Shown in pieces: positions 1-40,426 of a DNA stretch of 64,000 nucleotides (its first letter is position 1; each line of letters starts with the position of its first letter). The DNA comes from Spiroplasma tabanidicola (GTDB lineage: Bacteria > Bacillota_I > Bacilli_A > Mycoplasmatales > Mycoplasmataceae). Position numbers and translations under genes: made by a program. The stretch lies in NCBI RefSeq assembly GCF_009730595.1, contig NZ_CP046276.1, forward strand, positions 682,001 through 746,000, written 5' to 3'. The notes beneath the pieces were generated by a model that searched no databases, was not told the DNA's origin, and saw only the letters and a list, made by a program, of their open reading frames with translations.

Positions 1-2182
1 TAACTATATAATAAAGCCAACATATCAAAGTTTAGTTCTACTACTACATAATTTTACAGGGTACCATAACTAACTGACCATGTATTGATCTTTACTAGAA
101 GTTCTACTACTACATAATTTTACAGGGTACCATAACGGTTTGACGACCTTATATCTATTCTTTTTTGTTCTACTACTACATAATTTTACAGGGTACCATA
201 ACTGATATATTCTAAATATTGATTTGCTAATGGTTCTACTACTACATAATTTTACAGGGTACCATAACAAAAACCTGATTATATTACTTATCAGTTAAGT
301 TCTACTACTACATAATTTTACAGGGTACCATAACTTGTATTTAGAAAACTCAAAAGTAATAGTAGTTCTACTACTACATAATTTTACAGGGTACCATAAC
401 CATTAGCAAGTTGGTTGTCTTTATTTACAAGTTCTACTACTACATAATTTTACAGGGTACCATAACACGGCGTTGCTAACCCAGAAGACTTTGCTGGTTC
501 TACTACTACATAATTTTACAGGGTACCATAACTGATTTCCAGGACAAAAAAGTAGCTTGCCTGTTCTACTACTACATAATTTTACAGGGTACCATAACTA
601 AATAAACTTTTCATTTTATCTAAATATCGTTCTACTACTACATAATTTTACAGGGTACCATAACTAGGAGCAATTAGCCTTGTAAGAATTGTATGTTCTA
701 CTACTACATAATTTTACAGGGTACCATAACAAGATGTACATTTTCATAAATCAAACATATGTTCTACTACTACATAATTTTACAGGGTACCATAACTCTG
801 CTTATTATTCTCTCTCACATTAAATAGTTCTACTACTACATAATTTTACAGGGTACCATAACTAAAAGTAGTCATCTCATACTCACTAAAAGGTTCTACT
901 ACTACATAATTTTACAGGGTACCATAACTAATATTTTATTTAACTCTTCTAACGCTCAGTTCTACTACTACATAATTTTACAGGGTACCATAACTTGTAT
1001 TGTTTATCTTCAATAGCTTTAGCAGTTCTACTACTACATAATTTTACAGGGTACCATAACTGACTAATCAATAGGGACGCTCCCCTTAAGGTTCTACTAC
1101 TACATAATTTTACAGGGTACCATAACAGGGGGTTTTATCAACAAATTGGAAATACCGTTCTACTACTACATAATTTTACAGGGTACCATAACCATCATAC
1201 TAAATAACATATATATCTAAATGTTCTACTACTACATAATTTTACAGGGTACCATAACGAAAACACAACTCTGTTATAGACATGTTTTGTTCTACTACTA
1301 CATAATTTTACAGGGTACCATAACATATATGATTCTTTAAATGTATTTCTATATGTTCTACTACTACATAATTTTACAGGGTACCATAACATAATAATTG
1401 TCAATGTAAATAAAAGGAGGGTTCTACTACTACATAATTTTACAGGGTACCATAACCTAAAAATATCGCTATCTCTAATTCTAATTGTTCTACTACTACA
1501 TAATTTTACAGGGTACCATAACTGACTAATCTTTTGTTTTTAAACCCTATCAGTTCTACTACTACATAATTTTACAGGGTACCATAACACTTCTCTTTTA
1601 ATTTCTCTAATCTTTTAGGTTCTACTACTACATAATTTTACAGGGTACCATAACCATACAACTTTTTATAATCATCTTTTTTAAGTTCTACTACTACATA
1701 ATTTTACAGGGTACCATAACTAGAAACACAAGTAGTCTTGCCACTATGTCGTTCTACTACTACATAATTTTACAGGGTACCATAACAATCAAGTTTGCTT
1801 GTTAATTGTTTTGCTTGTTCTACTACTACATAATTTTACAGGGTACCATAACATATATACATGTTTATTTTAAACTCTATATGTTCTACTACTACATAAT
1901 TTTACAGGGTACCATAACTTAGATATGTTTAAAACTAATTCTGTCGATGTTCTACTACTACATAATTTTACAGGGTACCATAACGATTTAGATGGAATGA
2001 ATAACCCAGTTTATGTTCTACTACTACATAATTTTACAGGGTACCATAACGATATAAAAGATTACATGGTAATTTACAAAGTTCTACTACTACATAATTT
2101 TACAGGGTACCATAACCTGCTTCTATTTTTTGTAAAATAAATCTGTGTTCTACTACTACATAATTTTACAGGGTACCATAAC
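1..2182 (-). CRISPR. CRISPR array, type II-A, 33 complete repeats, continues beyond window start
   Basis: Repeats of 36 bp begin at position 35 and recur every 66 bp without exception to 2147-2182, giving 33 complete repeats plus the last 4 bases of another at 1-4. All 33 spacers in the window are exactly 30 bp. On the plus strand the repeat starts GTTCTACTACTACATAATTT and ends GGGTACCATAAC; I see no repeat variant. The crRNA sense is the minus strand, because the tracrRNA anti-repeat at 4421-4446 pairs with that sense and the cas genes are on the same strand. The leader end is therefore near 2182 and the oldest spacers lie off the left edge. Apparent ORFs in the array are repeat translations. 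Confidence 0.99.
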
Positions 2183-2209
2183 CTCAAATCAAGTGTTTTT
2201 TTAAAATAA
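2183..2209 (-). promoter_or_regulatory. Very short leader between csn2 and first repeat
   Basis: Only 27 bp separate the csn2 stop codon from the leader-proximal repeat. Any leader motif used by Cas1-Cas2 for spacer integration, and any array promoter, must lie largely inside the 3' end of csn2, or the array is transcribed from the cas operon. Position is seen; function is inferred. Confidence 0.5.
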
Positions 2210-3139
2210 TTATAAGTTTAAAAGGTAATGGAAAACAGGATAATTTATTTCTAAATTTTTACTATTATAACTACTTATTAGGTTCTTAGTGTTTAAAAGT
2301 AGCTCATTATAAAAGTCATTTTCTAAAGTACAATTTGAAAAATTCATATAAAACTTTAAATTATCAATAATAAATGATAAATCTAAAAACTTGTTATCTA
2401 TTCATATTTTTAAATTTTCTAGATTTAAATCATTTTCATAAATAAACTTGTCACTAACAATTGTAAAATTTTTTAACTCTTTAATATCATCAAAAAACTC
2501 TTTTATTTCTATATAATTTAGCCCAAAAAATGGATTCACAAATAAAAAATGTAAATTTTTATCATCAATTATTAATAAATTTTTTAATATTTCAATATAT
2601 ATTATTCTTAACTTGTTTTGATTTAAATAAGTGTTGGTTTCATTTTCATCGATATTTTGTAACTTTAAAATTGTTTGATCACAAATATAGTTAATAATTT
2701 GATCTTGAATCTCTATAGTTATTTTTAAGCCTAATTTAGATTCTAAATTAGTAATTAAATTTTCAATTATGTTGAGTTCAGTTAAATCAATTGTATTAAT
2801 AAACCCAAATAAAGTTGATAAACTTTGAGAAGAAAAAGCATCATAAGTTATACAAAGATTTAATAACTCTTTTAAAATAGTTTTACTTCCTCCACAAATA
2901 CTTTTAGTAAAATCTATGAAGTTGGGTACTTTTATTAATTTAGTTGTTAATTTATCTATCATAATATCATTTTCTTGCATTTTGATTTCATAATCCGGAC
3001 TAGAAAATTTGTTTAAAAAACTTAAACTTAAAGCTAACTCCAAATCATTTATAACATCTAGATTGTTTATAATAAATACATTATTATTTGTAAAATTAAA
3101 GTTAATATTTTTATTACTATTTTTATTTAAAATTTTCAT
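2210..3139 (-). CDS. csn2: CRISPR-associated protein Csn2 (type II-A)
   Basis: The gene encodes 309 aa when the TGA at 2402-2404 is read as Trp; a standard-code reading would stop 64 residues early. Csn2 is the ring-forming, DNA-end-binding protein of type II-A systems that works with Cas1, Cas2 and Cas9 in spacer acquisition. Identification rests mainly on position (last cas gene, next to the array) and on the pattern of an N-terminal beta-rich part followed by a helical segment; sequence similarity to well-known Csn2 proteins is weak, as is usual for this family. The length fits the longer Csn2 subfamilies. Its start overlaps the cas2 stop (TAATG), so the two are translationally coupled. 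Confidence 0.8.
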
Positions 3140-3462
3140 TATATTTCTATAAGTCTCCTATCATCATTTATTAATTCATTATTATTTTTTTTACCAACAA
3201 CAATTTTAATATTTTGATATTGTTTTTCTGTAATTATTAGAAATCTTACATTTCCAAGCTTAGGTAAAAATTTATTAATTCTTTTAATAACAAAATCAAC
3301 ACTTTCTTTGTTATAACAAATTTTTGAATAAATTGAATATTGCATCATGTGAAACCCTTCTTTAAATAAGTTATTTCTAAATTTATTATAAGATCTTACA
3401 TTGTCTTTTGAATCGAAAGGTAAGTCATAAAATACCATTAATCTCATAAATTTATAGCTCAT
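3139..3462 (-). CDS. cas2: CRISPR-associated endoribonuclease/integration protein Cas2
   Basis: The protein has 107 aa, normal for Cas2. The N-terminal strand MRLMVFYDLP carries the conserved Asp (D13 from the first ATG), followed by a ferredoxin-like beta-alpha-beta pattern ending in a beta strand typical of the Cas2 dimer interface. Cas2 bridges two Cas1 dimers in the spacer-integration complex. The chosen ATG overlaps the end of cas1 by 11 bp; the alternative ATG at 3447 (Met6), 4 bp after the cas1 stop, is equally possible. Neither has a clear Shine-Dalgarno sequence, which suggests coupling to cas1 translation. Confidence 0.95.
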   Translation of the reverse strand: MSYKFMRLMVFYDLPFDSKDNVRSYNKFRNNLFKEGFHMMQYSIYSKICYNKESVDFVIKRINKFLPKLGNVRFLIITEKQYQNIKIVVGKKNNNELINDDRRLIEI

Positions 3463-4357
3463 AATATTCTACTGATGAACTTATTGGATAAATTACATCA
3501 TTAGTACTTTTATCTTCAAAAAAGTTTAAAACCATATCAACATATTTATCAATAGCATTTGTTAAATAGATTTTATTATTACCATAAATAACTTTAGAGT
3601 TTAAAATGTTTATTAATTCTAGTTTTGTAGATCTAGAAAAATAATCGATTTGTGTTACATATTTATAAACATAATTATCAACAATTGGGCGAAATGGTTC
3701 CATTAAATCATCCGCAAGAGCAAAAGCATTGTACATATTATGATGAAATAAGGCTATGCTTGGATGAAGTCCTTTTGAAGTGATTGATCTAATAAATGCA
3801 TTTCTTATAATTGTATAACCAAAGTTTAAAGCTGCATTTATGTGATTTTCTTTTTCTCTTGTAAAAGTGTTTCCAAATAGCTCTTTAAAATAAACCTTAG
3901 CCGCGTGTCCTTCTTTATTTGTTGAATCACTAAATTTCATTTCTTCAATATATTTATATAACAAGTTAACTTTTTCTAGTTTTTTTAAGTTAACTTTTAA
4001 TATATCAATTTGTGCTTCAATTTTTTGTTTTACAATTTGTGTTCATAAATATAATTTATCTTCTTTTTTTCAATTTAATTGATTATTAATAATTTTTAAT
4101 TGTAAGTGATTTGCTTCAATTGGTTGAATAATCGATATTGGTTTTAACTCCACATCACAAATTAAAGTTAAAATCTTTTTTTGAGCAAGTTTATTAATAA
4201 TTCTTGTAGTAACAACAGTTTTATAATTTTCAAATAATATTGCATTAATGTCATCTAATGGAATATGATATTTAACATTTGCACTTTCAACAACTAAATT
4301 ATTTAAAAATAAATTTATCCTTTCTCCATCTTTAATAATTATTGTTTTTCAAGACAT
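3452..4357 (-). CDS. cas1: CRISPR-associated integrase Cas1 (type II)
   Basis: 301 aa, the usual size for type II Cas1, starting MSWKTIIIKDGER. Metal-binding catalytic residues are in place: E149 in KEGHAAKVYF, H205 in LFHHNMYNAF and E220 in DDLMEPFRP. The N-terminal ~100 residues form the beta-rich dimerisation domain and the rest the helical catalytic domain. Cas1 with Cas2 cuts and joins new spacers at the leader end of the array. The gene follows the tracrRNA terminator by only 8 bp, so it is transcribed either by readthrough of that terminator from cas9 or from a promoter I cannot identify. In-frame TGA codons encode Trp. Confidence 0.97.
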
Positions 4358-4365
4358 TTTTTAAT

Positions 4366-4388
4366 AAAAAAAGAGGAATAAATTCCTC
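4366..4388 (-). terminator. Intrinsic terminator of tracrRNA
   Basis: A 6-bp stem GAGGAA/TTCCTC (4373-4388) is followed by T7 on the minus strand (4372-4366). It sits directly in front of cas1. Confidence 0.85.
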
Positions 4389-4454
4389 AGTTACGGCATT
4401 AAAGCCTTATATATGATAGTCCTGTAAAATTATGTAGTAGTAGAACTCATATAC
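4366..4454 (-). ncRNA. tracrRNA
   Basis: On the minus strand, 4446-4421 is a 26-nt perfect anti-repeat to the repeat in crRNA sense. Six further bases at 4418-4413 pair with AUGGUA of the repeat across a small bulge, which gives the usual lower stem - bulge - upper stem. Downstream come a short GGC/GCC hairpin (4406-4395, nexus-like) and a GAGGAA/TTCCTC hairpin (4388-4373) followed by seven Ts. Predicted length is about 85-90 nt. tracrRNA pairs with pre-crRNA, allows RNase III processing and loads Cas9. It lies between cas9 and cas1 instead of upstream of cas9. Confidence 0.93.
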
Positions 4455-4460
4455 ATAATT

Positions 4461-4490
4461 AATATATCATATAATATTTAAATTAGTCAA
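4461..4490 (-). promoter_or_regulatory. Promoter of tracrRNA, -35 inside end of cas9
   Basis: TTGACT (4490-4485) and TATATT (4466-4461) are spaced by 18 bp and would start RNA near 4454, just before the anti-repeat. The -35 box is made of the last Leu-Asp codons and stop of cas9 (TTGACTAA). Confidence 0.7.
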
Positions 4491-7400
4491 GATATTTTAT
4501 TTTTGTTCTTGTTGAATTTGATGTGACTAATTTAATTTTTTTCATTTTCTTAATTGATTTGAAAATTCTTTTTTCATTTTCTACACTTTTATTTAAATAT
4601 TTAAATTCAAATCTTTCAGCATTTTTGTCAAATCCTACAACGATATAATTTAAAATCTCACCATCATATTCAAAAATCAATTCATTATTTTTAAATAATG
4701 TGAATTTTTTCTTATATGTTTCATCAATTTTATATAATAATTTTTCTTGCTCATATTCTTTTGTTTTAAAATTAATATTTGAGTTATTTTTATTACTTAC
4801 AAAATATGCTACTTTATGAGTAATTGGTAAAACTTTATACAAATTATACTGTTGTGAATAAAATAAATCTCAACCTAAAGTATTTGATCCTGTCATAACA
4901 ATTTCTTTACCTTTTTTAACATTTTTAAATTTATGAGTAATTTTTGTATATTGATTAACAACTCCATTATTGTATTTTAAATATCTTATGTTTGGTGGAT
5001 TTTTTTCATTAGATTGTTTTATAATTTTTTCATTTAGTTCATAAACAAAATGATGAAATGGGTTTTTAACTGGTTTATTATCTTTATCAACATCATTTAT
5101 ATAAGTATCATATATTTTTTTTAAATGATTAAATGTTTTTGAATCTGACTCATAAACTAATAAATCTTTATAATCTATGGTAAATAACTTATTAATTTTT
5201 TTTATTTTTTCTGAATCTTTTGATAATAAATCTATTTTTTCAATTTTATATAGATTATTGTCAATTACTTTGCAACTATAAATAGTTTCATTAAACATCA
5301 TTTTGTTTGAACTTTTTTCTATCTTTTTAGTAAATTTATAATCAAAACTATTAATGTCATTAACAATTAAGTTTATTTCTTCTCTTTTAATAATTTCTTT
5401 TTCATCTAATTCTCCAATTATTTTATTCATAGTTCTTCCATCATAAATATCAATAATTGGAGCTAATGCACAAATTGTTGCATCAACTGCATGATGTTTA
5501 AAATCATCACGATCTTTTTTAGGTAAATATAAGAAGTTACTTCTTATATAATTTGTAAATCCCCCATTAATTGTTTTAATTGAATAAGGTTTTTTTAATT
5601 CTTTTTTAAAAAAAGTTAAATAGTTTTTTACTTCTAAAGTTGCATATCTAGTATCATTTAAGTTTCTATTAATAAAACTTTTTTTAACTTCTGTGTCATT
5701 TATATCTTGTTCAAATATTAAATTTTGATACTTATTATAACCATACTTTCCAAATTTTTTACTTCCAACATAATTTATATACATTAATGATTTAAATTGC
5801 TCTCAATCACGATGTATTTCTCTAAAATATTCATATGGTGTTTTTTTACCCTTTTGTTGATTTTCATTTTGTAATACCAATACTTTATTGGTTCTAGAAT
5901 CGTCTAATGATACTGAAAAAGGAATAATATGATCAATTTCACAATAATTTGGATCATTAAAAAGTCTAGTTATATCTATTGTTTTACCAGAGTACACACA
6001 TTTACCATCTTGTTCATTTAATAAAGTTAATTTTAATCTTGTTTTAAAATCAATTCTTTTAGTGTTTTGATTATATTTTTTTTCAATTTCAGTTCTTTCT
6101 TTTTCATTTTTCTTTTGAATTTCATTAATATATTTTTTTCTATCTTCTGAATTTGATTCTCTTGCTAATTCAATTACAATATCTTTAATTTCAATATCAG
6201 ACATATTTTCAATTTCTTTAATGATTTTTAAACTTTCAATTAAAGATCTTTTAACAACTGGAGATATATACATCTCTGAAATTTTTTGTCTTAAAACAGG
6301 CATTTTTGTAAATTTTCTATCAATTTTGATGTTGTAATCTGGTTTTATATTTTTTTCAGAAAAAATTTGCATGTGATTTTTATTTTCATATCACATTTCT
6401 TCAATAGCAATATTCATAGTTTTTGCACTTAGACTATGAGTACCTGTTAAACTTATTAAACTAATTGCTTCAATTTGTTTATCATCTAATAAATTGCTAT
6501 TTATTTTTAAAAGTTGTTCTTTTCTAGAATCTGAACTTTGAAAAACAGTTAGTATTTCTACAATTTTATCTAATAAATCAATATTTTTTAAACTTATAAA
6601 ATCATACTTTAAATTTGAACTTATTAAAATACTTCTAATTTTATTAATAGATTCAAATTTTGTGAAATTTGGTTTTTCCTTTTTATCGATTCGATAACCA
6701 GTAATATCACTTTCTTTTACTTTTAATAACTTTGCAATAATTTTTAAAGTAATATTTTTACTTTTAGTACCATCATGATTTATTACAGATTCAATTACTT
6801 CATACTTTTGATCATAAGTTAAACCGTTTTCAACATCATTAATCTTTAAATTACATAAATCATTTAAAATATTAAATAAGTATGAAGTCATCGAATGTTT
6901 TGGTGCTCTTTTTTCTTTACTGTTATATGTATCATAACCAGAAAGACGTTCAAAAAATTCTGATTCATCTTTTCAGCCATACTCACTTTTAGTTGTTTTT
7001 GAACTAGTAGTTCATCCAGGACCATCAAAATATTGTCTTTTTCTTTCGTATAATTTTATAAAACTTTCTTTAAATTCTTCATTTATTAAACCATTAGCTA
7101 TTTGTGTATCTAATATTTTTTCAACTTCTTTTTTATATCAATCATGAGCAATTAATGCATCTTCTGCTTTTAATCCTCGATACTTACCAAATGTTTTAAA
7201 ATTGTTTGCTTGAATATCAACAGGAAGTTTATCTTGTTTTGCATTAATTTCATCTAAACTAACATCTTCTTTTTTTTCTTTTTTTAATTCCATTAAATCG
7301 TCTTTATAATTAAAACTTCCTCTTTTTTTAGTGTAATTATAAAGTATTAACATTAATTCTTGTAAACTTATCTTATTTTCAAGTGATTTTTTTCTCACTT

Positions 7401-7692
7401 CTAAATAGTCGATATTAAAATCAAGTTTATAAAAATCTTCATAACTATTTAAAAAATCAAACTTTACAAATATATTTAGTAAATCTCTTTTTCTTAAAAC
7501 TTTTCTTCTTAGATTTCTTCTTCTTGTTCTTTGCATTCTTCTATCAGAAGTAGTAGAAGTTTTTTGACCTCCAGCATTTGCTTCACTAAATAAACGTGAT
7601 CCTGCATTTATGATTTTTTTATTTTCTATATCATATATTGATCATCCAACTGAAGCTATACCTATATCTAATCCTACATTTACTTTTTTCAT
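4483..7692 (-). CDS. cas9: CRISPR-associated endonuclease Cas9 (compact, type II-A)
   Basis: 1069 aa with TGA as Trp; close to the compact Staphylococcus-type Cas9 in size. Visible in order: Ruv[17 protein letters not shown] (D9); Arg-rich bridge helix around residues 52-70 ([20 protein letters not shown]); recognition lobe with KKRGSF and FDGPGWTT...YGW; Ruv[12 protein letters not shown] (E508); HNH domain [10 protein letters not shown] (D587, H588) with N611 in [14 protein letters not shown]; RuvC-III HHAVDA (H734, D737); C-terminal PAM-interacting region. All catalytic residues are present, so both DNA strands should be cut. Start ATG at 7692 is preceded by AAGGAG. First gene of the cas operon; the tracrRNA follows immediately. 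Confidence 0.98.
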
Positions 7693-16908: not shown

Positions 16909-18355
16909 TTTTTTCGTAATTTTTACTATATTGATTTATACAAATTTTATATGACTATATCTAGTGTTTTTTTCACTTATTTATTTTTCTTTATTAATAT
17001 GATTTAAATAATTACATTTTATACTAATAAAAAATAATTTATTTTATTAGTATAAAAATTACAATAATTACTCATAAAAGTTTTCTAAAAATACATTTAA
17101 TGATTTTGTAAATTTATTAATTATATTTTAAACTTCTTCAAATAATTATTATATTTTTAAATTTTTTTGCATATTAAAATTGTTTATTTTTTATTATAAA
17201 TAAAGTAGTTATAGTATTATTTATTTTATAATTAATAATTACATCATAATCAATCATAAACCATTAAAGTGTTTAGCTTATTAAATATCTTGAGTTATTT
17301 GAAAGTGTCTTAAATTAGTTCATGAATACCTGTAAAAATAGTTGTTTTTATAACATTTTTTAATTAAATAATTTTTAAGATATCGATTATGCTTCTTATA
17401 TTCATTTGATAAAAGTTTTAAATATTTTATTTACTTTTTTTAGATACTTTTAATTTCTTTTCTTATTGTTTTTTAATTAATTTTATATAAACTATAGTAT
17501 TTTTATTTGCAAAAATTATTTCTATTAAAGTCAGAATCTCATGCTAAATTATTATTTTTGATAATATATTCTTTAATTTAACCAATATCTATATCACATT
17601 TAGAAATCCTAAAATCAGTTAAAACTTAAACTTTTAATTATTTTTGCATAAAAATTATATTTTATAAACTTATTATGTTGTTTTGAAAACACTTAATTAA
17701 TTAATTTATACCAATTTTATATTTTTAATAAAAATACAAAATTAGCAAATTATAAAATGTTTATAGGTCAATTTTTTTACATTTACTTTTAAGTTTATTT
17801 AAAATAAGTTCTTTTTTTAGTTTTTTACTCATTTTATCAACAAAAATATGAAATTCACTTAAACTATTAGAATAATAAAATTTATCTTTCTTAACAAATA
17901 TTCTGGTTAAATTGCTAACTGATTTAATATTTTGATCAAATTCTATTTGGTAAATAGCATTCCATTAATATATATCTAAAGCTATTTTTTTTTTTTTTTT
18001 GTGTTTTATAGATATTTTTCCTATTTAGTGTAAAAAATATGTTTTAACTAATTTAATTAGGTTTGTTTCTTAAAATCTTAGATATATCATTAATAATTAT
18101 TTTTTACTTATAAATATTTTTTTCATAGTATATATTAATATGAATTTTAAACGAACTAACACAATAATATTGTGTACGCTTTGAGATTTTATTTCTGTTT
18201 TACTTGTAAATTTTATAAACTTGTTACGATATTTTAGATTTTTTGTTTTTATAAAATTATTCATATTAAGTATGTCTATGTATATAAAATTAAACTTACT
18301 TTTTGATCAGTTATTTTTATTAATATTATTTTTTTACTTGTTTTTTTATCTTAAT
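16909..18355. other. AT-rich decayed region, no intact gene
   Basis: About 1.4 kb without a gene. On the minus strand, 17964-17761 stays open for 67 codons (IYQIEFDQNIKSVSNL... KKIDL, stop TAA), and further short pieces in mixed frames between 17650 and 17270 (e.g. NNNLAWDSDFNRNNF) suggest one eroded gene I cannot identify. A T16 tract lies at 17985-18000. No RNA gene seen. Confidence 0.45.
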
Positions 18356-18404
18356 AAAAATTTCAAAGATAATTCAATAAAATATAATTATCTTTGAAAT
18401 TTTT
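18356..18404 (-). terminator. Terminator of the herA transcript
   Basis: Perfect 19-bp stem (18356-18374 with 18386-18404) starting AAAAATTTCAAAG; its inner end overlaps the herA stop codon. Confidence 0.85.
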
Positions 18405-19896
18405 ATAGTTGTTTATTTCAATTATCGAATACATCACTATTTACAACACTTAACTTTTTAGTACTTTTTATTTTAATGCTAAAAAAGGTTGAGAATGCTT
18501 CTCCAAAAACTATTGCATTTTGAACTCCAATTGTGGATAAAAACTCAAATAATTTTAATCTGAAGTCGCAACAATTTTGCACTTGCATAATATCTTTATA
18601 GTTATTTAAAGTGTGTACAATAAAATTAGAGCATTGACTTATATATAATTCAGGAATATCTGATAGTGATTGAGTCGACAATCATAAACTAAAATTAAAT
18701 TTTCTTCCTTCTCTGACAAGAAGTTCTAAATACTTATGGAATATTTGATTATCATCTTTAAATAACCTGTGACTTTCATCCATAACAATTAATATATGCC
18801 TATTATTAGTCATAGAAGAGTTGTGAATCAATTTTGTTATTAATGTAAATATTAACTTGTCAATTGGATTTTTATAATTCATTTTTATTATCATTACGTG
18901 CTTAAATTTATTATTCATAAAATCATATAAAAAATTTAATTCTGGTTTTTCACTTTCAAAGACTTTTAAATTTTTAACAAAAAATGGATTCTTAATAAAC
19001 TTATTTATTCTTGGTAAATCATATTTTGTTTTATAATCTTCTTTTTCTTTTGCTACATCCATTAGTTTTTTTAAATTATCTATTTCACTGATACGTCCTA
19101 TTAAATGATTACTCATTGTTTCTGTGAAACCAAAAATTTCAATATATTCATATAAATCTAAACTTTCATAACTACCTATATTAAAATTTATAAGTGGTCA
19201 TAATGTTTCATCATTACTTAACAAGTCATATCTTTGTATATAATTTTCATTGACAATATTTGTATATTCCCCATTATAATCAAAAATTATTATTTTAGGA
19301 TTAAAATATCTTGAAAATTCTATTTTTTTATCATTTTTATAAAGCTCCTTATTTAATGTACTTCTAATTAAATGGGCGATGGTTCTTGACTTTCCAGAAC
19401 CTGTTTTACCAAATATGCCTAAGTGTTTTCCGAATAAATTATTAAAATTAGAAGATATTTCAATATTTTTATTATTTATAAGATTTCCAACTTTAATAGA
19501 TAAATATTTTGAATCAACACTACAAATAGTTTTCAACACTTTTTCTTCTAATAGATAAACTTCATTATTAATTTTTGGATATTTTTCTAACTTATCACTA
19601 AAGCTATTTTCTATCTTATTATAAGTTCCTATAATAGTCGAACAAACAGTTACTTTACTTCTCTTTCATTCAATGACATTAAAATTATTGTCATAATTAT
19701 CATTTATTGAATTTACTTTCAAAATTATTGAAAAATTATTAGTTATATTTGTTTCTAAAAAACTATTAATATAAAAATCTTTATTAATGCAAAAATTTTG
19801 ATCAATGTTATCAAACGGGACTTTGATAATTATTTTATCTTGTGTTATAGAACTAATATATCCAACAAAATTATTCATTTTCTCAAATTTCTTCAT
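18403..19896 (-). CDS. HerA-type DNA translocase/ATPase of a SIR2-HerA defence pair
   Basis: 497 aa, intact when TGA is Trp (last residues WNKQL then TAA). A small N-terminal beta-barrel-like (HAS-barrel) region is followed by the Walker A motif GKTGSGKS (163-170) and Walker B ILIVMDE (D373, E374), then LVREGRKFNFSLWLSTQSL, a typical HerA/FtsK sensor segment. HerA forms a hexameric ring that translocates DNA. Immediately upstream and overlapping by 26 bp is a SIR2-domain gene, an arrangement known from the SIR2-HerA antiphage systems, in which SIR2 degrades NAD+ when phage is sensed. Start ATG 19896 lies inside the end of sir2, so expression is coupled. Confidence 0.85.
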
Positions 19897-21157
19897 TTTC
19901 TTCTAAATCTTCATATTCTACTAATCTTTTGTTGTTTCACAACAAGTTTTTTAATAAATTATTTATATTTTTACCATTATCATACCTTTCGTTTGATATT
20001 ATTTTTTTAGAAATTAAACTGAAATCAGAAAATTCTTTTCCAAAAAAAAAAAAAAAATATTTAAGTTATGACCTCTATTAAATAATTTTACAAAATCTTC
20101 GTGTCTTTTGTTATTTTTATCGTAATAATCATACACAAATATATAAGCCTCAAGACTAGAATTACTATAAAGTGAATCAAATAATAACGAATTAACATGG
20201 GTGTCATTTAATGAATAACTACAAACAACAATATTAGTTTTTTGAATAGATAAAACGTTTTTAAAATATCTAAATAAATCAGAATATATAGATAAGTTTG
20301 ATTCATTAAATTTATTAGATGTATGTAAAATAAAATGAGAACTATTTTCTAAATTTTTAATCAATAATTTATTAACAACAGCATCTCTATAAAAATCGAT
20401 TTGTTTTTCAATTATGTTATTATTTTCCTTTTCTCAACCTATTAAACCATGTAGTTTTACAAGATTAATATGATCCATTTTTATTCTTTGATTTTGAAAA
20501 CTATTTGTATACTTTATAGTATCATATTGAGAAATTTTAAAAGTTCTTGTCAAAACGCCTGAAAAACCATTATTAATATTAAAATCAAAAAAATCAGCCA
20601 TCTTTTCTAACAAAACATCATAATTTAAGGAAAAAATAGTTATAGTTTTATTATTTTTAAGTTTATTAAAAATACTATTTAAAAAAATAATTATATCTAT
20701 ATTAACTGTATAGTCATAATCAATATTTCCGATAGCCGCTCTTAAAAACTGTTTAATAAAAGAGTCATTATCTTCAGAAAATTTATTATAAATAAATTTA
20801 TAGGCATCATTATCTTTAATTTCAAGAAAAGTTAAAAATTTCATAAAATAATTTAGTTGTTCTTCTATATTTACTTCGTTTTCTAAGGCAAAATGATCAA
20901 TAGATTCTTTTAAAAATCTTTATTTTTTAAATCCTTATTTTCATCTAAGGAATTAAACAAACTACTTATTCAGTTAGTAAATAATTTATTATTTATTTTT
21001 TTAAAACACTATTTATTGATATTCCATTACCAAATAAAAACACAAGATTTTTACTTGAACTTATTCTTTCATTCAAATCTAAATAAGTTTTTTCCATTTC
21101 TGAGTTCTCTAAATAGTCTTTTGAAAAATATTTAGAGAATATTTCGTATTTCTCCAT
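19871..21157 (-). pseudogene. SIR2-domain NADase, frameshifted (or phase-variable)
   Basis: ATG 21157 follows AGAGG by 9 bp. In three frames the sequence gives a full ~430-aa SIR2 protein: NLVFLFGNGIS (NAD-binding Gly-rich loop), TIFSLNYDVLLEKM (the TxNYD-like motif), VKLHGLIGWEKE (catalytic His loop), then a C-terminal region ending at TAA 19871-19873. Three shifts separate them: an A7 run near 21000, a T5 run near 20920 and a 16-nt homopolymer at 20042-20057. Each would be repaired by adding one base to the homopolymer, so sequencing undercalls, slippage-controlled expression and true decay all remain open. It overlaps the start of herA. Confidence 0.75.
20042..20057. repeat. A16 homopolymer inside SIR2 gene
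   Basis: Sixteen As on the plus strand (Ts in the coding strand). With 16 the frame runs to a stop 8 codons later; with 17 (or 14) it continues as FGKEFSDFSLIS to the proper end. A candidate contingency tract. Confidence 0.9.
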
Positions 21158-21444
21158 TTTTATATCCTCTTTAATATTATATTGCAATTTATATAGAATA
21201 GATAACTAATATGAATATACATATTTATTTATATGAATAATAAGCAATTATGTAACAGGTAAAATATACTTGGAAGTAAAATTACGAAGTAATTGAATTA
21301 TGCATAATTAAATAAATAAAATTAAAAATATAAAAATTTATCAAATAAACCAACCTATTTAATCACAAGTTTAGAAACACTTGGAAAATCGAAAAAGACA
21401 AACATAGAAAAAGTTAAAAAAATATAAAGAATTTAGACCAATAA
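21158..21444. other. Non-coding stretch between SIR2 and IS3 copy
   Basis: About 290 bp of AT-rich DNA holding the SIR2 upstream region. I see no gene or repeat in it. Confidence 0.5.
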
Positions 21445-22789
21445 ATATACTTTGTCAAGTACACAAAATGTTTTTTATAAGAATACTTCAAAATTATTTG
21501 AAGTATTCTTTTTATTTGTAATAAAAACAATATAAGCATATGCTGGAGGTTCATTATGTTTAAACATTATTCTTGTATAGTTATAAAACTCTACATAATT
21601 ATCTATTACCTTTTTTAGATTGATAAAACTATTTTGTTTTAATTTATTTTTTCATTCTTCTTTTAATGAAAAAAAAGTTTCACACATTGCATTATCAATA
21701 GAATTGCCAGGTCTAGATAATGATATTATTATGTTATTTTTTTTAGCATATCGCCTTACAAATACAGATGTTTACTTAATTCCATTATCAGAATGAATAA
21801 TTAGTTTTTTAGATATATCTTTTCTATGTAGCGAAGCTTTTTCCAGTTATTTTTTATAAATATCTATATCGTTTTGAAAGATACTTCATAACCGACTATA
21901 AGCCCAGTATTTGCATCTTTTATAACACTTAAATACGTATACTTTTTATTAAACGGTATATAAGTTACATCTCTAACTCATAACTCATTTTTTGAGTATA
22001 AAGATCAATTTCTATTAACTTGATTAGGGCCGTGTGTAATTTTTTTGACTTCTTTAGGCTTTCTATTCATTTTTTTAATTCTTATAACTGAATATAATTT
22101 AAAAATTTTTATAATTCTAGCTATCTTAGTTCAACTTGCCACAATTCCATTATTATTTAAAACTATTTTTATTCTTGGCGTCCCATAAATTTCATTATTT
22201 TTTATAAAAATATCTTTTATTTTAGAATCTAAATTCATATCTACTTTTAAGTTAAATTATGACTTATTCTTTTTCAACAGATATAATAACTAGCACTGAT
22301 TATATTTAATAATTTACATAAAGAAAAAATTGTATATTTATTTTTATATTTATCTATTTTTTAAAATAATTAATTATTCTTTTTCTGAATCCTCCATTAG
22401 TTCCTTGAACTTTTTTAAAACCTTATTCTAATTTTCTAATCATTTTAGTTTTTGTTAAGTTCAGCAATTTTTTTGTCTTTCGGATCTTTTGAATTAGTTC
22501 TAATTTTTTCGTTATGTTTGTTGTGTTTTCCTGTTTTTGAAATAAGTGATTCATCACCATAAACTTCTCAATCTAAACACATTCTTCTAACTGTTGAATA
22601 TGATATGTTGTAAGTTTTTGATAAATCTCTAAAAGATAAATTTTGCTTAAAGTATTTATTTATTAATTCTTTTTTAGTATAAAAATCTAGAATATTTGAT
22701 TTGTTTCCTTTTAAATTTGCCATATAAAAAATTCTCCTTGTATAATTTTATGTTTTTTTAACACAATGTATACTTAGAGAATTATATTT
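21445..22789 (-). mobile_element. IS3-family element, copy 1, degenerate
   Basis: About 1345 bp. Its outer ends, TATACTTTGTCAAGTACAC on the left and TATAATTCTCTAAGTATAC reading inward on the right, form imperfect inverted repeats. The content is a two-frame IS3-type transposase on the minus strand. It is a close relative of the copy at 25486-26834, in the same orientation. Confidence 0.85.
21475..22723 (-). pseudogene. IS3-family transposase (orfA/orfB), copy 1, broken
   Basis: orfA starts at ATG 22723 after AAGGAG: MANLKGNKSNILDF..., with the HTH segment LSFRDLSKTYNISYSTVRRM, and breaks off in a shifted frame after KIAELNK. Pieces of the DDE core of orfB follow in other frames; the last one, SRPGNSIDNAMCETFFSLKE... 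NEPPAYAY, is the typical C-terminal end of IS3/IS150 transposases and is intact to TAA 21475-21477. Several stops and shifts between rule out activity. Confidence 0.85.
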
Positions 22790-23400
22790 AAAAACTTTTT
22801 AAATCTTTATTAATTATATTAATAAAACTACTTTTTATAAAAGTACAATAATAAATTGTTAAAATTATTTTTTATCATTCAATTTCATTTTACTCTTTTG
22901 TTAAAAAATATGTTTTTATTAATAAAAGTTTTTTGAGCCTAATTTTGTATATCTAAAATATTTAAATCTATATAAAATTATTTACTTATTTTGAAGGGTT
23001 TTGTTATTAATATTTCAAAAAAATAATATCGCAATAAGATTTTTATCAATTATTATATCATTTTAACGAGTGAATAATTTATTAATCAATAAATTATTTT
23101 TTATAAATTTAAATAATAAAATAAAAATATAAAATTTGTAAGTTTTTAAAACAGTTTTTATTGCATTATCAATTATTCGTAACTAGTTATTTAATTTATA
23201 TAAAAATAAAATAATACACTTTATGTAAAAAGGTCAAGTTTTAAATATAAAATAGTTTAAATTTAAACTCAATATAAACTATATTATAGCAAGATAATAT
23301 TTAAAATATATTAGTTTTTATACTATTAAAAAATTCAAATTTATAACATTTATTAGTACATTATAAATAGCACTAATAAATGTATATTTAAAAAGCGGAG
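22790..23400. other. AT-rich non-coding region
   Basis: About 610 bp between IS3 copy 1 and the lipoprotein pair. I see no coding remnant, only the ribosome-binding site GCGGAG directly before the next gene. Confidence 0.5.
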
Positions 23401-25338: not shown

Positions 25339-25485
25339 TGTTAATTTTAATAAATTTTATTTTAACGATTTTACTTTATCAGCATTAATATTTTCATTAG
25401 CAATATTTAGATTTTTATTAACCCCCACCTACTTTTATTCATTCAGTTAAAAAATATAATAAAAAAAGAGAGAAATAGTTTTTTA

Positions 25486-26834
25486 AATATACTTTGTCAA
25501 GTATACAAAAAGTTATTTATAAGAATACTTCAAAATTATTTGAAGTATTCTTTTTGTTTGGAGTAAAACTAATATAAGCATATGCCGGCGGTCCATTATG
25601 TTTAATAATTATTCTTTTATGGTTATAAACTCTACATAATTATCTATTACCTTTTTTAAATTAATAAATCTATTTTGTTTTAATTTAGTTTTTCATTCTT
25701 CTTTTAATGAAGAAAAAAAGTTTCACACATTGCATTATCAATAGAATTACCAGGTCTAGATAATGATATTATCATGTTATTTTTTTTAACATATCGTCTT
25801 GAAAATACAGATGTGTACTGAATTCCATTATCAAAATTAATAATTAGTTTTTTAGATATATCTTTTCTATGTAGCGAAGCTTTTTCTAGTGATTTTTATA
25901 AATATCAATATCGTTTTTTAAAGATACTTCATGACCGACTATAAACTCAGTATTTGCATCTTTTATAACACTTAAATATGCAAACTTTTTATTAAACGAT
26001 ATATAAGTAACATCTGTAACTCATAACTCATTTTTTGAGTATAAAGTTCAATTTCTATTAACATGATTAGGCCGTGTGTAATTTTTTTGACTTCTTTAGG
26101 CTTTCTATTCGTTTTTTTAATTCTTATAACTGAATATAATTTAAAAATTTTCATAATTCTAGCTATCTTAGTTTAACTTGCCACAATTCCAATATTATTT
26201 AAAACTATTTTTATTCTTGGCGCCCCATAAATTTCATTATTTTTCATAAAAATCTCTTTTATTTTAGAAGCTAAATTCAAATCTACTTTTAAGTTAAATT
26301 CTGGCTTATTTTTTTACATCATCGATAATAACTAGTTCTAGTTATATTTGATAATTTACATAAAAAAATAATTGTATATTTATTTTTATATTTATCTATT
26401 GTTTTGTAATAATTAATTATTCTTTTTCTGAATCATCCATTAGTTCATTGAACTTTTTTAAAACCTCATTCTCCATTTCTAATCATTTTATTTTTTTGTT
26501 TAGTTCAGCAATTTTTTTGTCTTTCGGATCTTTTGAATTGGTTCTAATTTTTCCATTATGTTTGTTATGTTTTCCAGTTTTTGAAATAAGTGATTCATCA
26601 CCATAAACTTCTCAATCTAAACACATTCTTCTAACTGTTGAATATGATATGTTGTAAGTTTTTGATAAATCTCTAAAAGATAAATTTTGCTTAAAGTATT
26701 TATTTATTAATTCTTTTTTAGTATCAAAATCTAGAATATTTGATTTGTTTCCTTTTAAATTTGCCATATAAAAAATTCTCCTTGTATAATTTTATGTTTT
26801 TTTTAACATAATGTATACTTAGAGAATTATATTT
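25486..26834 (-). mobile_element. IS3-family element, copy 2, degenerate
   Basis: About 1350 bp, beginning ATATACTTTGTCAAGTATAC and ending GTATACTTAGAGAATTATAT. It is nearly the same as copy 1 over its whole length, with scattered substitutions and indels. Same orientation as copy 1. Confidence 0.85.
25517..26767 (-). pseudogene. IS3-family transposase (orfA/orfB), copy 2, broken
   Basis: ATG 26767 opens an orfA that reads through to LEMENEVLKKFNELMDDSEKE and a stop, the normal orfA end with its leucine-zipper segment, so orfA is more complete than in copy 1. The orfB frame carries many stops and shifts; recognisable parts are VTDVTYISFNKKFAYLSVIKD (first catalytic Asp region), GHEVSLKNDIDIYKNH and SRPGNSIDNAMCETFF. 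Not functional. Confidence 0.83.
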
Positions 26835-27130
26835 AATTTAAAATATTTAAATATTATTAATAACTACTAATATAATTTATTTAACTAATATTTTTAAAAA
26901 TTAGTAAGTAATAATTTTGTATTTCTACATTAATTAAATAATTATTGATATTACTTTTAGATTTTTTATTTATTTAAGTCACCTTTCTAATTTTATCACT
27001 ATTTATATTTTGGTAAAACTATTTAAAATATATAATTATTTGTTATTAAATAAATATACCATCTTTATTTTAACAAATTTAAGTGTATTTTATCTTATAT
27101 AATCAACTTATAAGTTGAAAGGATAATAAA
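26835..27130. other. AT-rich upstream region of the ATPase gene
   Basis: About 300 bp without a gene; the only clear signal is GAAAGGA 8 bp before the next ATG. Confidence 0.5.
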
Positions 27131-29443
27131 ATGATAATAAATAAATTTAAAAATATATACGGAATTAAAGAAATTAAATTTGAAGATGCGAATACTACCT
27201 TTACTAAAAGTGTAACATTAATTTATTCTAAAAACGGATTGATGAAATCTTCTTTTGTAAAAGGAATCAAAGATATAGTTTCAGGAAAATTTCCAATAGA
27301 AAGAATTTATGGTAATAATCCAGAATATGATATTACGATTTTAAATAAAAACTACACTAATGGGAAAATTGTTGGCAAAGATGATCGAGTAATTTGTATG
27401 GAAAATAACAATTATCAAGAAAAGTTAACTGAAATTAATCAAATTGTATCCTTATTGCAAAGTGATGAATTAACTAAAAAATATAATGAATTACTCACAA
27501 AAAATGAAAATGTTATTAAGGAAATAAAAAAGTTATTTGAAAACAAACTTGATTCTAATAATTCTACATTAAAAAATATAGGTCAACAAGTTTATGGTTT
27601 GAGTGATAACTATGAAATTGAACTAATTAAAACATTAGTAAATACTGATGTAGATGTATTAATAGAAGCTAAATCATTAACTACTAAGGATTTATTATCA
27701 TTAAAAAAAGATTTTTTAGACAATCTAAATAATTCAAAACCCGGAATAGAACTTTTTAAAACTATAAAAACTATGAAAAGAGGTATTTTTACAAATGACA
27801 TTTTTACTATGGAGGATTTCAATGATTTAAAGGAATTTTTTAAAAATAAAGTAAAAAATTTCTTTTCATTAGGAGAAATTATTTTAAAAACTAATTCCAA
27901 TGAGAATATAACTATAACTTCAGTTGATGAACTTAAAGAATATTATGACAAAGAAGTTCTTACAATATATGGAAGTGAAGATGTTTTAAAGAAAGTAAAA
28001 GAAGTAAAAAAGTTTTTTTTTAATAATAAAACTAATAGAGAATCTAGTGAATTATTTTTGCAAAACCCTTGATTATGAGATAAAACACAAAATAAAGATT
28101 TAGTAAAAAGCTGTTTTAGAAGTATGTGTGAAGCTTTTTTTGAAGATATTATAAATATTTTTAATAATATAAGTTCAAATGTTAAAGATATAGAAGAATT
28201 TAATGAAAATATAGTAAATGATAAACAATATTCGACCGTATGAGAAAAAATATTAGATAAATTTTCTAGTATAATTGACTTACCTTTTAAAATAAAAATT
28301 ACAAATAAAAAAAACGCTCTTCTTTTAAAAGAAGTACCCATATTTGAATTTGTTTATGAAGATGAGAAAGTAGTCAATCATAATGAGGATAAGGTTTTAG
28401 AAACTCTTAGTTCAGGAGAAAAAAAAGCTTTATATTTTTTAAAACTACTCTATAAGATTGAAATTGCTAAAAAAAATAATAAAGAATATGAAATGGTTAT
28501 TATATTAGATGATGTAATTGAATCATTTGATTATAAAAATAAATACGCTATATTATCTTATCTTAATGAGTTAATATATAAAGAAGTACCAAATGTTAAA
28601 AATAAAATAAAATTAATAATTTTTTCTCACAACTTTGATTTTATTAGAAACTGTCAATCTCAGTTTAAAGCTAAAAGTAACACTTATATGGCAGTTAAAA
28701 ATAAAGATAATAAAAATATTGTTTTAAAGAATTTTTTTAAAGGTTATAGTACTTTGAAAAATGTGGATGATGGTTTAAAGTTATTTAAAGGTTGAATAGA
28801 TAAAGCTAGAAATATAGTTGATAAACAATCAACTGAGTATAATGAAATATTAATTGCATTATTGCCAGTATTAAGAAATATAAATAGTATAAAAATAAAA
28901 AATGATAATTCTTCAATAATAAAAGCTCTACATTATTATGGAGATACCAGTTTTTCAAAAATAAAATGAGAAAATTTAATAGATATTTTCGATGATATCA
29001 AGTTAGAAATTGACAAAGCGTATTATAATCAAAATATAGAAACTGTTGCTGTCGAAGTATCTGATGAATTAGTTAAAAATGAAAGAGATGATATCTATGA
29101 TAGTTTACTTAAAAAATTAACACTTTCGATAACAATAAGGTTACTTTTAGAAAAATATATGTATAAATTAACAAGTAATAATTCTGATGAGAAAAGTGAA
29201 AAGAAAAAAATATTTGCCAACGAAACAGGTGAGATATATAGTAATTTAAAAAATAAATATAAAGCGAATAATAAGGAATTACCTTCTGAATTTAAAGATG
29301 TTATAACAAGTTCGTTAAGAGTTATTAATGATCATATTCACATTAACTCTTTTATGTATGAACCACTTTTAGACTTAGATGAAGAATTGCTATCAAATCT
29401 ATATAAAAGAGTTAGAAATTTATCTTTTGAAAAAAATAAGTAA
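27131..29443 (+). CDS. ABC/SMC-like ATPase, candidate stand-alone defence protein
   Basis: 770 aa with TGA as Trp. Residues 29-42 (TLIYSKNGLMKSSF) form an unusual P-loop in which Met replaces the last Gly before Lys39. This NGxMK(S/T)S variant occurs in a family of ABC-type ATPases annotated only as AAA-family or ATP-binding proteins. Residues 80-300 are helical and probably coiled-coil. The ABC signature LSSGEKK (426-432), Walker B MVIILDD (D460, D461) and a His-switch segment FSHNFDFI follow. The C-terminal HIHINSFMYEPLLD (735-748) is, as I recall, conserved in that family. No nuclease motif is visible. It is a single gene next to SIR2-HerA and transposons; a role in phage defence is inference from context. 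Confidence 0.7.
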
Positions 29444-39210: not shown

Positions 39211-39788
39211 TTGTTATCTCCTCTTTTCTAGTATTTTTAATATGCATTTATTATATTTTCAATTTAAAAGAAAGTACTTTCACTTTACAAATACTGTTAT
39301 CAAAATTATGAATAACAAGTCATTATGTCAAAATAAAATATACTGGCACGTAAACTGTTTGAGAAATTGCAATAGATATAATTAAAAAAAAAAAAAAAAT
39401 AGAAGTTATAAAAGGTTTATTAAATAATCTAAAATTCATAAACACAAGTGCAAAAAGACATGTATACAAAAGTTAAAAATTATAAAAAATCAAAATTTAT
39501 AAATTAAAATATTATAATTTTAGAATGTTAGATTATTGAAAAAGTCGTTAAAAAGATACAATCAGCTATTCTTCATTAAGAAATATAATGAAAGAAAATT
39601 AAAAGTTAGTAATTAGTATGAGCAAAAAAAACTAAAAAAAACAGTTTAAAAATAACTTAGACTCATTAGTTATAATTAAAATAAAATTCCATTATTAAAA
39701 CTCTCTAACCCAATCTAAAGAAAATAACAAATTTTGGTGCAGTTTTTTAAGAATATGCTCATATCGTTTTATTCTATATAGAAAAAAT
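39211..39788. other. Non-coding region with A16 tract
   Basis: About 580 bp, no gene seen. An A16 homopolymer lies at 39384-39399. Confidence 0.5.
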
Positions 39789-40020: not shown

Positions 40021-40426
40021 CATAAATTGTTTTATTGCTTTGATAAAACTTTAATAATTTCTCTTATATGGGGTGTTTATAAAATTTGTTTCCCTAAAAC
40101 ACTGACTTTTGATCTAAATAAGTCTTAGAAACATAAAAAACTTTATTAAAAATATTTATTAAAATTTATTTTTTAAGTAATATCACATCAAGTTTCGATG
40201 TTTTTATCCAAATCTTCAATAAAAACATTATTTTTTTTTTTTTTTTATATTTATTTTTACCTCTATAAAATGTGTATATATTATTTTCTTAAATTAGTCA
40301 ACATAGTTTCAAAATCTCAATGTTATATTATTCTAACATCCAGGCTTGAAATTCAACATTAATTATAATATTTTCATAAATAAACTTATGAATTGTTTTT
40401 AAAATTTTTTTTATCTTCTGGTTTTA
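40021..40426. other. Decayed tail region with T16 tract
   Basis: About 400 bp downstream (minus sense) of the Fic remnant. Mixed-frame residues such as KKILKTIHKFIYENIIINVE may be its eroded C-terminus. A T16 tract lies at 40231-40246. Confidence 0.35.

What the first reader, a model, noticed from the sequence alone, without database searches (positions are those of the whole stretch)
18403..21157. SIR2-HerA defence pair in a mollicute, effector possibly phase-variable
HerA is intact, while SIR2 needs one added base at each of three homopolymers (A7, T5, A16) to be whole. One A16 tract is a classical slippage site; a switchable NADase would limit autoimmunity. But three defects of the same kind could also be sequencing undercalls, or plain decay with HerA left over.
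Basis: partly seen in the sequence, partly recalled or inferred. Interest (0 to 1): 0.65.

Follow-up and report, generated by a model that had tools for sequence, protein, structure and literature searches.

The report
Broken phage-defence gene beside intact partner
A known two-gene anti-phage system (SIR2 and HerA) is present in this spiroplasma-like bacterium, but its killer half is broken in three places and most likely is simply decaying rather than being switched on and off; the same chromosome keeps a second, intact copy of the system.

Summary
HerA (18403-19896, minus) is intact. The upstream SIR2 NADase gene (about 19871-21157) is coding in four consecutive segments whose frame steps by -1 three times: in an A7 near 20996, near a T5 at about 20919, and at a T16 (coding strand) at 20042-20057. 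Profile searches confirm both genes, and the catalytic motifs are kept.

The phase-variation reading is not supported. The tract sits after nearly all of the SIR2 domain. Two frame breaks lie upstream of it, so changes in tract length cannot restore the protein. Sequencing undercalls are unlikely: in 284 kb sampled from the same assembly, apparent frame breaks fall in lipoproteins and mobile elements, none seen in a housekeeping gene. Three in one gene is about 1e-5 at that rate. Recent decay of the effector fits best. The genome carries a second, intact SIR2-HerA pair and lacks MutS.

A by-product is more interesting than the locus. Here A/T runs nearly stop at 8, with one of 11 and none of 12-14, yet seventeen are exactly 15 or 16 long. 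Sixteen are intergenic, several terminator-like; only the SIR2 tract lies inside a gene. Long tracts occur in 52 of 60 genomes of the family.

The parts
18403..19896 (-). HerA-type ATPase, 497 aa, intact (Walker A GKTGSGKS, Walker B IVMDESH, REGRK); an alternative start ATG lies at 19878
20993..21157 (-). SIR2 N-terminal piece with the NAD-binding GxGxS motif (FLFGNGIS), ending at a stop just after the A7 run (20996-21002)
   Evidence: profile 12-48, E=8e-4
20920..20996 (-). short middle stretch of SIR2 in a third frame, between the first and second frame breaks
   Evidence: coding likelihood; no significant homology on its own
20014..20919 (-). main SIR2 piece (ATG-initiated ORF 20014-20844, 276 aa) with NYD and KLHG catalytic motifs
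20042..20057 (-). T16 tract on the coding strand (A16 on +), out of frame at its present length; the only one of 17 such tracts in the genome that lies inside a gene
19871..20041 (-). SIR2 C-terminal tail in the next frame; its stop codon overlaps an in-frame HerA start at 19878
21442..22827 (-). broken IS3-type transposase copy immediately upstream of SIR2, 92% identical to a second copy at 25484-26875
25484..26875 (-). second broken copy of the same IS3-type element
27083..29443 (+). intact 786-aa ATPase matching PADLOC candidate defence family PDC-S46, a further defence candidate nearby
   Evidence: (E=1.6e-87)
17985..18000 (+). T16 tract, non-coding, same length class

Best explanation
This is a SIR2-HerA (Nezha-type) anti-phage operon whose NADase gene has recently become a pseudogene, while the adjacent, overlapping HerA gene is still open. 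By analogy with the known system, the intact pair would assemble HerA hexamers with SIR2 and deplete NAD+ on phage infection. Here the effector cannot be made, because translation stops about 55 codons in, before the catalytic centre is reached. Loss was probably tolerated because a second, intact SIR2-HerA pair, Cas9 and other systems are present. With no MutS, unrepaired slippage at A/T runs gave frame breaks as the first lesions. The T16 tract is one of a class of slippage-grown poly-T runs that this lineage otherwise keeps out of genes. Shown: both gene identities, three frame breaks, retained catalytic motifs, intact second copy, absence of mutS, tract class. Inferred: loss of function, order of events, redundancy as the cause, slippage as the cause of the tract lengths, and the biochemical mechanism.
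For: Frame steps and homology. Catalytic NYD, KLHG and GxGxS kept, so the loss is recent. Intact second pair at G000 C1 509107-512026. Background rate of non-IS frame breaks outside SIR2 is about 6 per 3752 A/T runs of 5 or more in sampled coding DNA (hand count), and all lie in accessory genes. At that rate two or more in this gene has P=8e-4, three or more 1e-5. No MutS in this genome or 20 relatives, against 11 of 14 control genomes. Neighbouring IS copies are also broken. Only 1 of 17 tracts is in a gene although about 82% of sampled sequence is coding (P about 2e-11).
Against: HerA is fully open, and apart from the three frame breaks the SIR2 reading is otherwise stop-free, so selection has not been absent for long. 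No reads, other strains or close orthologues were available, so a mixed population or an assembly error cannot be excluded. All three steps are in the same direction, as undercalls would also be.
Confidence: 0.7

Rival explanations
1. The frame breaks are undercalls in the assembly and the gene is intact in the cell.
For: All three are -1 steps at or next to A/T runs; the domain is otherwise intact.
Against: Genome completeness 99.82%. 3752 A/T runs of 5 or more, 610 of them 7 or more, lie in sampled coding DNA with only about six unexplained frame breaks outside SIR2, none seen in housekeeping genes. SIR2 is single-copy, so polishing would not fail because of repeats. A T5 is not a particularly error-prone run.
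Confidence: 0.14
2. The T16 tract is a contingency switch: replication slippage changes its length and turns the SIR2 C-terminal tail on and off, limiting self-poisoning.
For: The tract is out of frame at its present length and followed by a coding-like tail. Long A/T tracts are expected to be hypermutable without mismatch repair. Two paralogous sites in G018 have T18 and T20 in nearly identical flanks, so lengths do drift.
Against: Two further frame breaks lie upstream, so no tract length restores the protein from its start codon. The tract comes after nearly all of the SIR2 domain (profile position 351 of 378). The intact SIR2 genes of relatives are open and were not found to carry such a tract. 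Of 90 tracts in four genomes only this one clearly lies in a gene.
Confidence: 0.09
3. RNA polymerase slippage on the T16 run, with or without ribosomal frameshifting, produces some in-frame product, so the tract is silent rather than a lesion.
For: Selection against A/T runs in genes is evident from about 9 nt in many bacteria and is ascribed to slippage (PMC1088944); in Buchnera slippage gives heterogeneous mRNAs for frameshifted genes (PMC2831843).
Against: It would bypass only the tract; the A7 and T5 breaks are in runs shorter than that.
Confidence: 0.05

Closest known systems
Nezha / SIR2-HerA anti-phage system (solved complex PDB 8j4u, 8sub, 8suw)
   Same: SIR2 gene directly upstream of and overlapping HerA; SIR2 piece matches the 8j4u SIR2 chain (E=3e-16), HerA matches the 8j4u HerA chain (E=8e-15); catalytic motifs present
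   Different: SIR2 is broken in three places; HerA is shorter (497 aa against 610); scores are far below the NCBIfam equivalog cut-offs
Intact SIR2-HerA pair in the same genome (C1 509107-512026)
   Same: same gene order and families; complete ORFs of 378 and 592 aa
   Different: only about 26-30% identical, so not a recent duplicate; follows a nicotinamidase-like gene and precedes what look like nusA and infB
Tuberibacillus calidus SIR2-HerA (L082)
   Same: closest HerA in the genome collection (26% over residues 43-497), also a short HerA, with an intact 451-aa SIR2 directly upstream
   Different: SIR2 intact; standard code

Membership tests
SIR2-HerA (Nezha) defence system | HerA-type ATPase gene with Walker A, Walker B and arginine motifs | tested here: met
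SIR2-HerA (Nezha) defence system | adjacent SIR2-domain gene with NAD-binding and catalytic motifs | tested here: met
   (domain and motifs present, spread over frames)
SIR2-HerA (Nezha) defence system | complete, translatable SIR2 effector ORF | tested here: not met
   three frame breaks
SIR2-HerA (Nezha) defence system | NAD+ depletion and phage protection | not testable with these tools
   needs an experiment
NCBIfam NF042942/NF042943/NF042944 anti-phage SIR2 and HerA equivalogs | score above curated cut-off | tested here: not met
   93.9 of 500 bits (SIR2 piece) and 106.6 of 800 bits (HerA)
phase-variable (contingency) gene | a repeat tract whose length alone decides the frame | tested here: not met
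   two further frame breaks upstream
phase-variable (contingency) gene | tract length varies within a clone | not testable with these tools
   no reads available
phase-variable (contingency) gene | such tracts used inside genes in this lineage | tested here: not met
   none of the 73 tracts examined in three relatives clearly lies in a gene

The most novel reading that the evidence does not exclude
The SIR2 effector is carried as a reversible, mostly silent gene whose frame is reset by slippage at several A/T runs in a cell without mismatch repair, so that a small fraction of cells is armed (bet-hedged abortive infection).
Probability: 0.06. Interest if true: 0.65.

Novelty: new member of a known kind. 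Interest (0 to 1): 0.3.

Why it matters
It documents SIR2-HerA in several spiroplasma-like mollicutes, one of them with two copies and one effector lost, a clean example of defence turnover. The contrast between a lone in-gene T16 and many intergenic tracts of nearly fixed length gives a sequence-only argument for separating decay from phase variation in this lineage. It also exposes a length-quantised poly-T class that deserves study.

Tried and rejected
Proof by homology that the middle and tail pieces belong to SIR2: not significant, so coding likelihood was used instead. Search for a close SIR2 orthologue in 320 genomes of the order: only one genome besides the own matched, so no dN/dS. 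The idea that the A16 reflects a general assembly artefact: rejected, because other genomes show the same kind of tract with lengths up to 21. The idea that the tract inside SIR2 is a terminator: no stable hairpin ends next to it. Literature search for such tracts in Spiroplasma found nothing in the held library.

Full report
Setting. The window is bases 682001-746000 of a single-contig genome of 1,284,335 bases, 99.82% complete.

What is there. HerA at 18403-19896 is one intact frame with DUF87 and HerA_C domains and PADLOC HerA E=1.1e-47. Upstream lies a SIR2 gene in pieces. The 276-aa piece matches PADLOC SIR2 at 1.8e-27 and the SIR2 chain of the solved SIR2-HerA complex 8j4u at 3e-16. I collected 31 SIR2 neighbours from 80 HerA loci of other genomes, built profiles with these and the intact genes of relatives, and searched all 1889 stop-to-stop pieces of the window. 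The two best hits are the adjacent pieces 20996-21205 (profile 12-48) and 20017-20919 (profile 85-351). A codon-periodic model trained on long ORFs of the same genome gives exactly one positive frame in each of four consecutive segments, stepping by -1 three times. The tail's stop overlaps an in-frame HerA start at 19878.

Is it sequencing error? In 284 kb of the same assembly (234 kb coding) there are 3752 A/T runs of 5 or more in coding DNA, 610 of 7 or more. Frame changes without a gene boundary were found in lipoprotein-type genes (L020, L023), one accessory gene in the window (about 8598) and IS elements; none was seen in a housekeeping gene. My hand count is six non-IS events outside SIR2. 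At that rate two or more in SIR2 has P=8e-4 and three or more 1e-5. The count is a judgement and the sample is partial, but clustering in one gene is what loss of selection gives and what random undercalls do not.

Is it phase variation? The tract at 20042-20057 is downstream of nearly the whole domain, and two breaks lie upstream of it, so its length cannot decide whether SIR2 is made. Intact SIR2-HerA pairs in the same genome (L019 11108-14027) and in four relatives (L030-L033) are fully open.

The tract class. A/T runs in the window and in genus relatives decline smoothly to 8 and then almost vanish. Genome-wide, this genome has one run of 11, none of 12-14, eight of 15, nine of 16 and none longer. 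Nineteen of 20 genomes of the genus matched the tract pattern, and 52 of 60 in the family have runs of 14 or more. Across four genomes, 90 tracts were mostly 15-18 long, and only the SIR2 tract is clearly inside a gene (one further automatic call, L170, is an upstream region nearly identical to L169 and reads as intergenic). Mean folding energy of the 36 bases before the tract on the T strand is -3.3 against -1.6 for shuffles and -2.0 for the 36 bases after it, and 51 of 90 have a hairpin ending next to it (117 of 360 random positions, 119 of 276 intergenic runs of 7-8). So a part are terminators, not all. A simple reading is that runs above about 9 grow by slippage to an equilibrium near 16 where no selection holds them, and that genes are purged of them. 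MutS is absent, which fits. On this reading the T16 in SIR2 is a sign that the gene was already unprotected; this is inference.

Mechanism. If intact, the pair should act like Nezha (Sir2-HerA complex with NADase and helicase components; PMC12948488, Table 1, citing Tang et al. 2023). Here HerA is left without its effector. The second SIR2-HerA copy is only about 26-30% identical, so cross-pairing is doubtful. A Cas9 locus and a PDC-S46 ATPase are also present in the window, so redundancy is plausible.

Verdict. Observation confirmed; defence pair confirmed as a broken member of a known kind; phase variation not supported; undercalls unlikely but only reads can settle it.

Noticed in passing
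G000 C1, 17 positions; in the window 17985-18000, 20042-20057, 39384-39399, 40231-40246: A/T homopolymers form a discrete length class: 17 tracts of exactly 15 or 16 nt, one run of 11, none of 12-14 or above 16. 52 of 60 genomes of the family have runs of 14 or more. In four genomes they are nearly always intergenic, mostly with T on the sense strand of neighbouring genes, and about half follow a hairpin. Why the length is so nearly fixed is unexplained.
   Followed up: partly
window 1-7692: Type II CRISPR-Cas locus: an array of more than 30 repeats with exact 66-nt period, a 309-aa ORF, Cas1 (3452-4357) and a 1069-aa Cas9 (4483-7692), apparently intact.
   Followed up: partly
L019 10597-14027 (G000 C1 508596-512026): The intact SIR2-HerA pair directly follows a nicotinamidase-like gene, which would act on nicotinamide, the product of an NADase. 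It may be coincidence.
   Followed up: no
L033 4719-13886 (G031): A divergent SIR2-HerA-like pair sits inside what looks like a type I restriction-modification locus; its SIR2 gives no PADLOC hit at 1e-10.
   Followed up: no
window 21442-22827 and 25484-26875: Two broken IS3-type copies, 92% identical, flank two lipoprotein genes (one spiralin-like) between SIR2-HerA and the PDC-S46 ATPase.
   Followed up: no
L020 2857-4153 and 14307-15336 (G000 C1 about 52.9-54.2 and 64.3-65.3 kb): Two lipoprotein-type genes each with two frame changes; candidates for decay or variation.
   Followed up: no
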